This document shows, in pieces, positions 46,894 to 57,302 of a stretch of DNA of 64,000 bases (its first letter is position 1; each line of letters opens with the position of its first letter). The notes beneath the pieces are model-generated. The model saw only the letters and a program-made list of their open reading frames with translations. It made no database searches and had not been told where the DNA came from. The position numbers were made by a program, and so were the translations under genes. The stretch comes from Leptasterias polaris (taxonomy: Eukaryota > Echinodermata > Asteroidea > Forcipulatida > Asteriidae): positions 2,232,001-2,296,000 of the forward strand of contig JAZGTN010000011.1 in NCBI GenBank assembly GCA_037783415.1, in the 5' to 3' direction.

Positions 46894-47628
46894 TATGGTG
46901 GCCCTGAAGGGACATCGCACATCGCAAATATCTTTGCAAATATTTGCGATGTCGCAAATATCTTTGCAAATATCTTTGCAAATATTTGCGATGTCGCAAA
47001 TATCTTTGCAAATATCTTTGCAAATATTTGCGATGTCGTAAATATCTTTGCAAATATTTGCGATGTCGCAAATATTATTGCAAATATCTTTGCAAATATT
47101 TGCGACGTCGCAAATATCTTTGCAAATATCTTTGCAAATATTTGCGACGTCGCAAATATTATCGCAAATATCTTTGCAAATATTTGCGACGTCGCAAATA
47201 TTATCGCAAATATCTTTGCAAATATTTGCGACGTCGCAAATATTATCGCAAATATCTTTGCAAATATTTGCGACGTCGCAAATATTATCGCATACTTTAT
47301 CGCATACTTCGTCGCATAGTTTGCATATTTGTGGTGGATATTTTTTCAAGAGCCTAGATGGTCTTAAGGTTGTTTGGGTTCCAGCCTTCATTCCTTTAAC
47401 GTGTACACGCGGGTGGATAGTCGGATACAGTCTGCTCTGTGCGCGCGTGTGTTTTTTAGCTTGCACTATAGCCTATAGGTACACATGAGATGAGACGACG
47501 AAGAGAGGTTGACATCCGTGGTCTGTCCAACAAAGGCATGCAAGTCAACATTATGCCGCCTTCAAAAGGATCAGTGGTGAGGATTGTTAATTTTGTGTAG
47601 TTACGATAATCGGTTGTCCAGAGCAGAG
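46894..47628 (+). repeat. Left terminal inverted repeat of the 10.4-kb element
   Basis: Outer part (46912-47318): an array of about 42-bp units built from gcaaatatt, its complement and gacgtc. Inner part: 'catatttgtggtggatattt', 'ccagccttcattcc', 'gataatcggttgtcc'. Long open frames cross the array because 42 is divisible by three; they are not genes. Several segments in the 47460-47570 part differ from the right copy. Confidence 0.92.
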
Positions 47629-47819
47629 GGCTAGTTTAGGAACATTAAATACTAGTTTAGGCCTACTACTATACATCCTCCCCTGTCCGGTTTTCGATGT
47701 AGTATGCCTTTTTCTTTGAATTGAAAAAAAAATAAAATATTCCATAATCAACTGATGCCCTAATTACCTTCCTTTGTTTATAAGAAATATGCAAACATAT
47801 ATTAAAACGTGATGGACAT
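47629..47819. other. Interior of the 10.4-kb element, left part
   Basis: No gene recognised. Ends with gatggacat, the target duplicated by the nested element. Confidence 0.4.
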
Positions 47820-48328
47820 TAGACTTGTGGACAAGTCGTTAAATGTCTGTCGCGGTGATAGCGGAACGGCTTTCTCGCAATATCCCGCGAGAGGGCTGCT
47901 CTGTGCGAGATTATTGCTCTCACGACTGGTCGCATTTACCGACTTGTGAAACCCGCTGGCGGTTTGTGCACGGCCTATGGCCACTTCAGCCGAATTCGTA
48001 CGGACGCATCTGATTGGTCAATTTCGTTATATCTATGAATATTCAAACTGTAGATGAATATTAAACATCAAATCCTGTACTGGATGGAGTTTTATGTTGC
48101 TTTCCTTCCTCCATGCTTTGATCATGCACGATCAAAACCAAACACTGAGTGGTGAGAGTGATTGTGTTCATGAATATTTTGACACAAGAAAATACGTATT
48201 CAAATTATGGGTACAACTTGTAAATAATTACAAAAAATCGAACGTAAGATTTTATTTCAGTGTTTGACAGTGCACAGCGTGTGGGGACATGACGTAAAAC
48301 ACACGGGCAAATCGTGTAGCTGCATGCC

Positions 48329-48482
48329 ATGGCGCGCAGAGTTTCTCTCGGTGGGGCTCAGCATGACGGAAACCCCTACCCTAGCATGCCAAGAGATAGC
48401 TGTACCTGGAAGCTCATGAACATGTGGGAGGGGTTAGGGAGCCAGACCACCAACTACCTTGTCATTGCGGGTTTGTTAGTCG
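48329..48482 (+). CDS. Possible first exon, unrecognised
   Basis: The ATG sits in a strong context (gccATGG). The frame reads MARRVSLGGAQHDGNPYPSM and continues to LVIAGLLV, with a possible donor gtaaac after 48482; unspliced it stops at 48496. No known domain. It lies inside the nested MULE-like element, so it may be a captured host exon or chance. Confidence 0.3.
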
Positions 48483-48689
48483 GTAAACCTCGCTGATCGA
48501 ATCCGCTGTTTTAAAATCGTTACGTTTCAATGTTCGGTGTACGTTCCTTTCCCCCGATTTGGAAATTAAATAAGATTTATGTCAATAAATAGGAAAACCA
48601 CTCTTATATTGACGGTGCAATTAAGTTAAACAATTTGTGAGACAAAAACGAGCCCCCCCCAAAAAAAAAACAACACACAAAACCAGAGC

Positions 48690-53968: not shown

Positions 53969-54333
53969 AATAAGCCATTTGCGAGTTACATTTGAATAAT
54001 GTCTGGTACAATGACTTGTTTAGTCACAAGTTACCGCTTAAATTTGAATTCCTCAGACTATCGAGACAGTTGCTATGTCACATGATTAGGGGCAAGCTTT
54101 TGTATAGCAACCTCCAGATGAGCAAACCCTGGTACCATTATGCCATACACATCCATTCAGAATTGTGTATGGGTGTTCACCGTCTCTTACGTAACTAAGC
54201 AAAAGCTTGCCCCTAATCATGTGACATAGCAACTGTGTCGATAGTCTGAGGAATTCAAATTTAAGCGGTAACTTGTGACTAAACAAGTCATTGTACCAGA
54301 CATTATTCAAATGTAACTCGCAAATGGCTTATT
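53969..54333. mobile_element. MITE with about 135-bp near-perfect inverted arms
   Basis: The arms begin aataagccatttgcgag and end with its complement; a few mismatches occur around an 85-bp unpaired centre. The open frames in both arms are mirror images and not genes. A target duplication is not obvious. Confidence 0.88.
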
Positions 54334-56212
54334 GAGCTGATCATTTTTGATAAGGTGGTCTTTTAATGCAAGACGAGTAAGCAACGCAAAGAATTAGTTT
54401 GGCAATATTCCCTTTTTAATTTAGCCGTTTTCTATTTAATGCCTCAAATTTGAAACTACATAGGGGAGGTCAACTATGCTAATACATGGGTAGTGTTATT
54501 TAAAAAAATTCTTGACATTAAATAATACTTTTAATTTATAAAATACTGCTTTGTGTATGTAAGGTGGTTGTTTAGAATGTCTTTAATTATTCAAGAAGGG
54601 TTAGCAACATTCTCTTTTAAATAAGCTGCTTTCAATTGAAACTGAAGAGGGGTACTTTGAAATAAAATAATACTCATAAAGACTGATGTGTGTACATTAA
54701 AAGTGTTTATTGTCATTTACTCGTTGATCATCTAAAAATTTATAGTAAATGGAGGCCACCATGTTTGTATCCTCAATCCTGAAAACTATGCACCAGACTA
54801 GCTGAACATGTTTTGATCATATTCTATAGAATTTAAGTATAATTTAAACTTTGCATGGTGGAAGTGCAATCAGGTGAGGTTTGCAGTGACATCATGTGTA
54901 AAATTTCTTTTGAGCAGTGGTGGTTTGACAACTTCATGAAGACGAACAGAGCATACTGATCAAAACATCAAGTTGTGAAACCACCATTTCTTTTCAGGAC
55001 CACCACAAAGAGATCATTCACATGGTGTGTTGGTGTTACCACAAACCTCACCGGATTATAGTGATGTTCTTGTAATGACATCCATCCCATCTGAGTGAAC
55101 CAAATGTTTACAGATTTTTATCCAAGATTGTGGTTCTCAAAAAAGTTCCCCTTTTGAAGCCTCTTTACCGTAAAACTTCCATGTATGTAATATGTAGTGT
55201 GAATACAAACCAGTGAGAGACACAACAGCATGGGCTATATGTTTGACAAATTATTTGTGCGTCTAGCCGTCTAACTTTTGAATCTCATTTGGGAGCATTT
55301 ACAAACATTTCACCAACTATAGCGGCTATAAATAACACATTACCCACCCTAAATTCAGGTGAGATGAGGAACTCATACAATAAGATTGGCAATATTTTTT
55401 TTATTTTTTTAAAATTACTTTTAGTCTAGTGGTGGTGGGGGTACAAAAATCCTTTTGTCCATTGGGGTTGGGTTACATCGTTCGAATGGCATCCATTATA
55501 CATGTACATGAAGGAAGTGGCACTCTGTTGAACCTTCCGAGGTAGCCCCAACACCATCTGACAACTTGCTGGTATTCAACATTGCGATATTTTCTGCAAA
55601 CAAAGTAGTAGAAGAATAACAAATTAGGTAAGGTTAACAGTTCATGTCAATTTTTGTTAACGCAAAGTTTTCCCATTTTGAAGAAATCATGTACATAGTA
55701 AGGGTGGAAATATACTCTTCTGATTTGTCCAGTCCAACAACCCATAGGAGATCCCCCCCCCCCACACACATTTGGGTTCTGTAAGAAGTCAAAAACTGAA
55801 AAAGATGAGTCGCAACTATTTTTCTGTAACAGTCTCGACAATTGTGACAGAGATCACAATGTTTTGGAAAAATCTGTTAGTACAGCTTTTATGGTTAGTG
55901 TTGTCTTGAGTTGTATAAATGATCTAATCCAACAGTCAATTATACCCGAACCAAGGGTCAGGTAAGAGGGGTAATGTTTTTTATTTTTTTAGGGGGGGGG
56001 GGGGGGGGGGAGGTGTTTGCTCATCACATTAATTTTGCAGTTCAATTTAAAAACAAGACACTTGGGCCCTACTTCGTACTTGGTACAGCGTTTAGTTGTG
56101 ATAATCGTAACCCACCAACCTCTCCGACCGTCGGGAGGATGGTGGATTACAATTATCGCAACGACTACCTGACTATTTATCGGTACCTGCCGTATGTATT
56201 GACTCGAGTCCT
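54334..56212. other. Interior of the 10.4-kb element, right part
   Basis: Two diverged direct copies start near 54345 and 54560 ('aaggtggt...'). Inverted arms 'ggtgaggtttg' / 'caaacctcacc' (54873, 55040) and 'ggtggtttgacaac' / 'gttgtgaaaccacc' (54922, 54971) mark small palindromes. A G run lies near 55993-56010. 56104-56220 is an inverse copy of 51090-51236 and its flank. No gene identified. Confidence 0.5.
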
Positions 56213-56411
56213 GGGCCAAATTTCATAAAGCCTGTCAAAAAAAGTGTTAAGCACAAACACTTTGCTAAACAGAAACAAACAGGTTAGCTACTGCCAGTGT
56301 ATTCCATAAAGTTAACATAGTTGCGACTGGTACCCTGCTAAATTTTGCTAAGCAAATAGTACATTTTCCAAGCAGTATTTTCTGCTAAACAGCTTTATGA
56401 AATTGGGTCCT
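56213..56411. mobile_element. Palindromic MITE 'ttcataaagc'
   Basis: The ends gggccaaatttcataaagc and agctttatgaaattgggtcc are complementary; 'gctaaac' and 'ttgctaagca' recur inside. This resembles an abundant marine deuterostome repeat known to me by pattern. Confidence 0.7.
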
Positions 56412-56549
56412 GCCTGGTGGCCTAGTTTTTATACTTTCCATGGAGGTCCAGACTCCCCATGGGACTGGGAGTAGGTTGCTACCTCCATGTACCGTAGTAC
56501 GTAGTACTACTATTCTATATAGAGAAAGGACCTTGACTTGAGCCATCCA

Positions 56550-57302
56550 CTCTGCTCTGGACGGACAACCGATTATCGTAACTACACAACATTAATTAAC
56601 AATCCTCACCACTGATCCTTTTGAAGGTGGCATAATGCTGATCTTGTTGACTTGATGCCTTTTTTGGTTGAGATTCATCAAAAAAACGACCACGGATGTC
56701 AACATCTCCTCATTCTCAATCTCTCAGTGCATTTGACATACTACACACACACGGCGCAGAGCAGACTGTATCCGACTATCCACCCGGGTGTACACGTTAA
56801 AGGAATGAAGGCTGGAACCCAAACAACCTTAAGACCATCTAGGCTCTTGAAAAAATATCCACCACAAATATGCAAACTATGCGACGAAGTATGCGATAAA
56901 GTATGCGATAATATTTGCGACGTCGCAAATATTTGCAAAGATATTTGCGATAATATTTGCGACGTCGCAAATATTTGCAAAGATATTTGCGATAATATTT
57001 GCGACGTCGCAAATATTTGCAAAGATATTTGCGATAATATTTGCGACGTCGCAAATATTTGCAAAGATATTTGCAAAGATATTTGCGACGTCGCAAATAT
57101 TTGCAAAGATATTTGCAATAATATTTGCGACATCGCAAATATTTGCAAAGATATTTACGACATCGCAAATATTTGCAAAGATATTTGCAAAGATATTTGC
57201 GACATCGCAAATATTTGCAAAGATATTTGCAAAGATATTTGCGACATCGCAAATATTTGCAAAGATATTTGCGATGTGCGATGTCCCTTCAGGGCCACCA
57301 TA
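56550..57302 (-). repeat. Right terminal inverted repeat of the 10.4-kb element
   Basis: Inverted copy of 46894-47628, including the 42-bp palindromic array (56878-57272). The region 56640-56760 contains small indels and an unrelated patch relative to the left copy. Confidence 0.92.

What the first reader, a model, noticed from the sequence alone, without database searches (positions are those of the whole stretch)
46894..57302. 10.4-kb inverted-repeat element with 6-bp target duplication and satellite-bearing termini
Seen: exact complementary ends starting TATGGTGGCC, gcattg on both sides, terminal repeats of 735 and 753 bp, and an empty homologous site near 21580. Inference: a mobile DNA element of unusual size and terminal design. 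No transposase is recognised, so it may be a new family, or a large non-autonomous or composite member of a known one.
Basis: partly seen in the sequence, partly recalled or inferred. Interest (0 to 1): 0.8.

Follow-up and report, generated by a model that had tools for sequence, protein, structure and literature searches.

The report
Foldback transposon with satellite-filled ends
This is a real jumping piece of DNA that seems unable to make its own mobilising enzyme: one of many copies in this genome that share the same ends, with arms made of short tandem repeats and a middle that resembles parts of another jumping element.

Summary
The element (46894-57302) has exact TATGG..CCATA ends, GCATTG on both sides, inverted arms of 735/753 bp (outermost 508 bp identical) and a related uninterrupted site at 21488-21680. 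It is not a local inverted duplication: the exact 25-bp end occurs 602+592 times in the host genome (reversed control 0), and 15 of 24 distinct copies examined have perfect 6-bp target duplications, including 5 of 5 long ones. The usual long form is about 7.2 kb; this copy is 10.4 kb because of a 3.4-kb insert and a 0.36-kb MITE. It is a non-autonomous foldback transposon. Its ends and duplication match the published IS3EU signature (TAYGG..CCRTA, 6 bp), but no copy with a transposase was found, so that placement is likely, not proven. The core carries leftover last exons of two convergent genes resembling another transposon type: a THAP/DDE-like transposase and a P2RX7_C-domain protein. Short copies with the same end carry a different, at most distantly related 42-bp satellite and another core, so the end stays constant while arms and cargo change. 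In one copy the left inner arm carries right-arm sequence, best explained by arm-to-arm conversion.

The parts
46888..46893 (.). left target-site duplication GCATTG
57303..57308 (.). right target-site duplication GCATTG
46894..47671 (+). left outer arm (inverted repeat): 25-bp terminus TATGGTGGCCCTGAAGGGACATCGC, 42-bp satellite array 46922-47292, degenerate 12-bp array 47285-47322, unique inner part
56550..57302 (-). right outer arm, reverse complement of the left; satellite array 56904-57275
47672..51070 (.). 3.4-kb insertion of this copy, absent from the five other long copies compared
47820..50146 (.). nested inverted-repeat element (TAGACTTGT..ACAAGTCTA) inside the 3.4-kb insertion, flanked by 9-bp repeats GATGGACAT
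   Evidence: 9-bp flanks read by eye
51071..51618 (+). left inner arm, interrupted by a nested GACTTG-type repeat about 51240-51535
   Evidence: nested repeat limits read by eye
56077..56549 (-). right inner arm, interrupted by an AATTTCATAAAG-type MITE about 56208-56410
   Evidence: MITE read by eye
51619..56076 (.). core shared by the long copies; CpG o/e 0.26-0.38 in the pieces measured (52100-56070) against 0.80 for the window
53182..53640 (+). remnant last exon of a transposase-like gene; ORF of 131 aa from 53245; 53% aa identity over 67 aa to the last exon of the gene in L085
55455..55616 (-). remnant last exon of a convergent gene; 70% aa identity (54 aa) to the P2RX7_C exon of L085; the window piece itself gives no Pfam match
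53972..54330 (.). 142-bp inverted-repeat MITE, absent from the five other long copies compared
53783..53802 (.). point where this copy lacks about 550 bp present in the five other long copies
21488..21680 (+). paralogous uninterrupted target site with one copy of the 6-mer

Best explanation
A non-autonomous foldback DNA transposon. Shown: constant ~25-33-bp ends TATGG..CCATA, 6-bp target duplication, long inverted arms made of a 42-bp satellite, high copy number, different arms and cores behind the same end, one copy whose left inner arm has right-arm sequence, no transposase recognised in the copies examined. Inferred: a transposase supplied in trans, most likely of the IS3EU (integrase-like DDE) superfamily, recognises the terminal ~25 bp, cuts the element out and pastes it in with staggered cuts 6 bp apart. 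The satellite units (imperfect palindromes) would be extra binding sites or by-products of slippage and fold-back repair. Repair of broken or single-stranded arms would copy one arm onto the other and occasionally trap foreign DNA. That is how I explain the 4.5-kb core, which holds the 3' ends of two convergent genes resembling those of a THAP/DDE-type transposon.
For: Exact 25-mer end 602 forward + 592 reverse, reversed-pattern control 0. 15 of 24 distinct exact-ended copies have a perfect 6-bp TSD and two more differ by one base. Empty site. Long copies share core and arms. Of the 17 long end pairs (6-18 kb) among the 100 places listed, 16 contain the core ORF and none contains any of the 77 rva_4 or 57 transposase-core places. 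Copies of 742-1243 bp share the end but have another 42-bp satellite and no match to the long core (6 of them tested); copies of 84 and 186 bp are little more than ends. L033 left inner arm is 93-99% identical to right inner arms and 71-77% to other left arms. IS3EU: TA..TA ends, 6-bp TSD (PMC10045372, passages); TIR over 30 bp, TAYGG..CCRTA (PMC12730594, passages). Core ORF: dN exceeds dS in 7 of 15 copy pairs and is below it in 8, with only 1-6 differences per pair, so the test has little power and shows no clear selection.
Against: No autonomous partner was found: none of the first 30 of 77 rva_4 loci has the exact end (best: one 3-mismatch match in L058 that lies in ordinary-looking sequence), four wider regions have no end with up to 4 mismatches and no long inverted repeats, and no rva_4 or core-transposase place lies within 12 kb of the 71 (of 100 listed) ends compared. 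That rva_4 proteins are IS3EU transposases is my recollection, not a result. 9 of 24 copies lack a perfect TSD, and the 24 come from the first-listed contigs only. The core resembles a transposase gene of another type, so the ancestor could instead have been of that type.
Confidence: 0.72

Rival explanations
1. The family's autonomous ancestor itself encoded the THAP/DDE-like transposase and the P2RX7_C gene; the window element is a deletion derivative that lost the 5' parts of both genes, and the 6-bp duplication is a property of an undescribed branch of the Kolobok/P/MULE/Dada-like transposases.
For: The core keeps the last exons of both convergent genes in the same order as L085 and at similar spacing. 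ORF copies lie in 16 of 17 long end pairs.
Against: Deletion derivatives normally keep the ends and lose the middle; here the middle is kept. L085-type elements seem to have other ends: two copies diverge right after ..GTACTTCTTTAAA, which suggests a TTAA target (right end only), and no end with up to 4 mismatches lies in the L085 stretches fetched. Copies with the same ends carry other cores. No transposase-core place lies in the 17 long pairs or within 12 kb of the ends compared.
Confidence: 0.2
2. Composite element: two separate foldback elements inserted on either side of a 4.5-kb piece of another transposon and the whole now moves as one.
For: Arms on both sides, core resembling another transposon.
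Against: No inner copies of the terminus. Arms are one collinear inverted duplication down to the core. Long copies have the same structure and their own TSDs.
Confidence: 0.06
3. Local inverted duplication with a chance 6-bp match.
For: Only the presence of inverted arms.
Against: Genome-wide exact ends, 15 of 24 TSDs, empty site.
Confidence: 0.01

Closest known systems
Foldback elements (FB, Galileo, Tetris; sea-urchin TU elements, details recalled)
   Same: Long inverted arms with internal tandem repeats, variable arm length, variable middle, no transposase seen; extreme ends shared with short copies, as reported for Tetris and DAIBAM (PMC4079207, passages).
   Different: 6-bp duplication instead of 8-10 (Tetris); ends of IS3EU type, whereas that paper says most foldbacks seem to belong to Mutator and cites Galileo as P.
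IS3EU / GingerRoot superfamily
   Same: 6-bp TSD, TAYGG..CCRTA ends, TIR over 30 bp.
   Different: No transposase seen; arms are satellite-bearing foldback arms; core holds remnants of a gene pair of another kind.
L085-type THAP/DDE transposon with P2RX7_C gene (Kolobok-like by recollection)
   Same: Last exons of both of its genes are homologous to parts of the core (53% and 70% aa in the window copy).
   Different: No tandem arrays and no TATGGTGGCC ends in the stretches fetched; probable TTAA target, one end only. The THAP match is in another locus, L088, not in L085.
Rehavkus / Phantom MULEs
   Same: Minisatellite before the 3' TIR (Rehavkus) or after the transposase ORF (aphid Phantom) (PMC6446971, passages).
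   Different: TSD 8-11 bp in MULEs (9 in Rehavkus).

Membership tests
Foldback elements | long inverted arms with internal tandem repeats and a variable middle | tested here: met
IS3EU | 6-bp target duplication | tested here: met
   15 of 24 distinct copies perfect
IS3EU | ends TAYGG..CCRTA, inverted repeats over 30 bp | tested here: met
   criterion from PMC12730594, given there for a set of fungal families
IS3EU | integrase-like DDE transposase in an autonomous member with the same ends | tested here: inconclusive
   0 of 17 long pairs contain a listed rva_4 place; only 100 of 253 type-A end places were listed; rva_4 as the IS3EU domain is recalled
Mutator-like (MULE) | 8-11-bp target duplication | tested here: not met
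   6 bp; criterion from PMC6446971
Kolobok | TTAA target duplication (recalled) | tested here: not met
   duplications such as GCATTG, AATATA, GTTTTG
Dada | insertion in specific small RNA genes; no terminal inverted repeats (stated for the U6 and U1 families) | tested here: not met
   long inverted repeats, varied target hexamers; criteria from PMC3706591, passages
Polinton/Maverick | polymerase and integrase genes, AG..CT ends (recalled) | tested here: inconclusive
   ends are TA..TA, which does not fit; Pfam was run on a few translated pieces only

The most novel reading that the evidence does not exclude
An IS3EU-type foldback family in which a constant ~25-bp end is combined with turnover of the satellite arms (at least two 42-bp satellites that are barely alignable) and with capture of a 4.5-kb piece of a THAP/P2RX7_C-type transposon, kept uniform by arm-to-arm conversion: a transposon that turns over satellites and shuttles parts of other transposons.
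Probability: 0.45. Interest if true: 0.6.

Novelty: new variant of a known kind. Interest (0 to 1): 0.5.

Why it matters
[quoted passage not shown] A foldback with integrase-type (IS3EU) ends would show that the foldback form arises independently in yet another transposase lineage. The families with the same end but different satellites and cores, and the converted arm in L033, give a natural series for testing how satellite arms are born, spread and homogenised, and how transposons pick up foreign sequence. Many near-identical copies of the core ORF (25 rows with one identical score) suggest recent activity, so insertion polymorphism could be tested.

Tried and rejected
Host-gene capture: I first took the core ORF for a host gene (CpG-poor, exon-like). 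It has at least 150 matches in the genome and is homologous to the last exon of a transposase-like gene, so this was dropped. Direct hunt for an integrase-type transposase with these ends: the rva_4 family search gave 77 places, none linked to these ends as far as compared. Variant ends (base 19 not A): only 22 places, nothing useful. An 8.2-kb pair on C27 without the ORF, checked as a possible autonomous copy, held sequence that looks like a LINE first ORF in the 1 kb fetched (my reading). Viral contigs: no match to the end or the satellite (near relatives of the window's genome may be left out there). Pfam, PDB and protein-database searches of the core ORF gave nothing significant. Literature searches on foldback elements with sea urchin or echinoderm, TU elements, IS3EU and IS3EU with satellite listed no paper that I recognised as describing this family; I saw the listings, and passages of a few papers only. 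A count for the second satellite type and for satellite outside elements did not complete.

In one search I compared 119 of the 150 ORF matches (weak or fragmentary rows left out) and 71 of the 100 listed ends (mostly one per pair). In one search a smaller typed subset of the ORF places (40) was used. In one search, 11 of 12 arms could be extracted.
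Full report
What was checked. The element at 46894-57302 has identical inverted ends TATGGTGGCC.., GCATTG on both sides and outer arms of 735 and 753 bp. The outer 508 bp of the two arms have no difference; the next 162/172 bp are about 70% identical. Each arm is a 25-bp end, a 371-bp array of 42-bp units, a short 12-bp array and unique sequence. The target is itself a repeat: the joined flanks align through the junction with 21488-21680, which holds one copy of the hexamer (GCATTT for GCATTG). The 21-bp end, with up to 3 mismatches, occurs nowhere else in the window.

It is one of a large family. In the window's own genome (629.7 Mb, unnamed) the exact 25-bp end occurs 602 times forward and 592 reverse; the reversed pattern occurs 0 times. 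From 50 fetched loci, all on the first-listed contigs, I extracted 24 distinct exact-ended elements: 15 have a perfect 6-bp duplication, two more differ by one base, seven do not match. The five long ones (6.1-7.6 kb) all match. The seven failures include two neighbouring elements whose flanks look swapped (GATTTG/GAAATG and CAAATC/CATTTC), as expected if two copies recombined and inverted the DNA between them.

Canonical form and this copy. Aligned with the five long copies, the window copy shares 46894-47671, 51071-53783, 53802-53971 and 54331-57302 with most of them (L035 lacks 55435-56652, and L032 and L034 have rearranged arms); 47672-51070 and 53972-54330 are extra here, and about 550 bp are missing at 53783/53802. 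The canonical length is therefore about 7.2 kb. The 3.4-kb extra piece holds a nested inverted-repeat element, 47820-50146, with 9-bp flanking repeats; L082 holds what looks like a relative, with the same inverted-repeat ends and the same 131-bp tandem unit. The inverted arms continue inward (51204-51235 with 56147-56178; 51539-51618 with 56077-56153), so the original arms were over 1 kb and were interrupted by smaller repeats.

The core. The 131-aa ORF at 53245-53640 has at least 150 matches in the genome (200 candidates, 150 scored): about 65 at 97-100%, a group at about 75-81% with shared stops, and 10 near-identical places at 42%. Locus L085, from the last group, holds a multi-exon gene whose last exon matches the core ORF (53% aa over 67 aa in the window copy, 54% in others), and on the opposite strand a gene whose last exon carries a P2RX7_C domain (Pfam E 7e-11, above cut-off; P2X7 structures E 8e-7). 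That second exon matches window 55455-55616(-) at 70% over 54 aa, although the window piece itself has no Pfam match. The L085 main gene has weak, below-cut-off Mutator/MULE Pfam matches in consistent order and a DVWH motif that I recall as the DxxH signature of the MULE/P/hAT/Kolobok group. A locus of the 75-81% group (L088) has the two halves of a THAP domain in neighbouring frames about 1.2 kb upstream of its ORF match (below cut-off each); its DNA shows no similarity to the left part of the core. The right end of two L085 copies stops at ..CTTTAAA, suggesting TTAA; the left end was not fetched. So the core looks like the middle of another kind of transposon, with both genes cut off at their 5' sides. 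Between six copies the ORF shows no clear selection: dN exceeds dS in 7 of 15 pairs and is below it in 8, with 1-6 differences per pair.

Same end, other arms. Sixteen of the 24 copies, 742-1243 bp long, share the first ~33 bp (TATGGTGGCCCTGAAGGGACATCGCATATCGCA, with small variants) and then carry a different 42-bp satellite. The two satellite units are at most distantly related: best rotation 66% identity against a mean of 55% and a maximum of 64% for 60 shuffled units; beyond the first 40 bp the arms still give short matches at 65-76%, and together with the end they align at about 70% over 100-170 bp. Cores of 6 of these copies have no match to the long core. An 84-bp and a 186-bp copy are little more than the ends and have perfect duplications. 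The 38-bp start typical of the window type occurs 127+126 times; among the first 100 places listed, 17 pairs are 6-18 kb, 14 are 84-536 bp and 4 are too far apart to be one element. 16 of the 17 long pairs contain a core ORF; none contains a listed rva_4 or core-transposase match.

Arm conversion. Left inner arms of different copies resemble each other (85-97%) and right inner arms resemble each other (92-99%), while left and right of one copy are 70-73% alike, except L033, whose left arm is 93-99% identical to right arms and 71-77% to other left arms (11 of 12 arms could be extracted). That is best read as conversion of one arm by the other. The outer satellite arms are identical within the window copy and within L033, but in the other four copies they differ by array length or mismatches, and some between-copy comparisons are as close as within-copy ones, so homogenisation is not universal.

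Classification. PMC10045372 (passages) says complete IS3EU families always have TA..TA ends and usually 6-bp duplications; PMC12730594 (passages) gives TIRs over 30 bp ending TAYGG..CCRTA for a set of fungal IS3EU families. The window element meets these. MULE (8-11 bp), Kolobok (TTAA, recalled) and Dada (no TIRs in the U6 and U1 families, RNA-gene targets) are not met. I did not find the transposase. My estimate: non-autonomous foldback transposon 0.95; IS3EU-type mobiliser about 0.6; capture of the core from another transposon about 0.7.

Limits. The host group (echinoderm) was not verified. No other species' genome was searched for the family, apart from two viral-contig scans.

Noticed in passing
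window 47820-50146: Nested element with ~150-bp inverted ends TAGACTTGT..ACAAGTCTA and 9-bp flanking repeats GATGGACAT; what looks like a relative lies in L082 at about 302-2334, beside a rva_4 gene.
   Followed up: partly
window 50174-50276: Near-perfect palindrome: 51-bp arms, 92% complementary, 1-bp loop.
   Followed up: no
L015-L018 (C2:4724416-4727516 and C2:4752642-4755739): Two foldback copies about 50 bp apart whose flanks look swapped and inverted, as after recombination between copies; the arrangement is present at two places 28 kb apart.
   Followed up: partly
L085 5867-6393 (-): P2RX7_C (P2X7 intracellular) domain gene convergent to a transposase-like gene in a multi-copy element: a possible transposon accessory protein.
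   Followed up: partly
own genome: 77 matches to Pfam rva_4, in several distinct lineages, many with open frames; in L081 and L082 tandem arrays (21-bp and 20-bp units) lie within about 1-2 kb of the match.
   Followed up: partly
window 43782-45173: 463-aa open frame that looks like a piggyBac transposase (recalled resemblance, not searched).
   Followed up: no
window 39622-40310 and 60462-62635: GGCGGCCGCC-type 21-22-bp and TAAGAGGACAGGTCATAGGATCC-type ~30-bp tandem arrays in opposite orientations, perhaps another foldback-type element.
   Followed up: no
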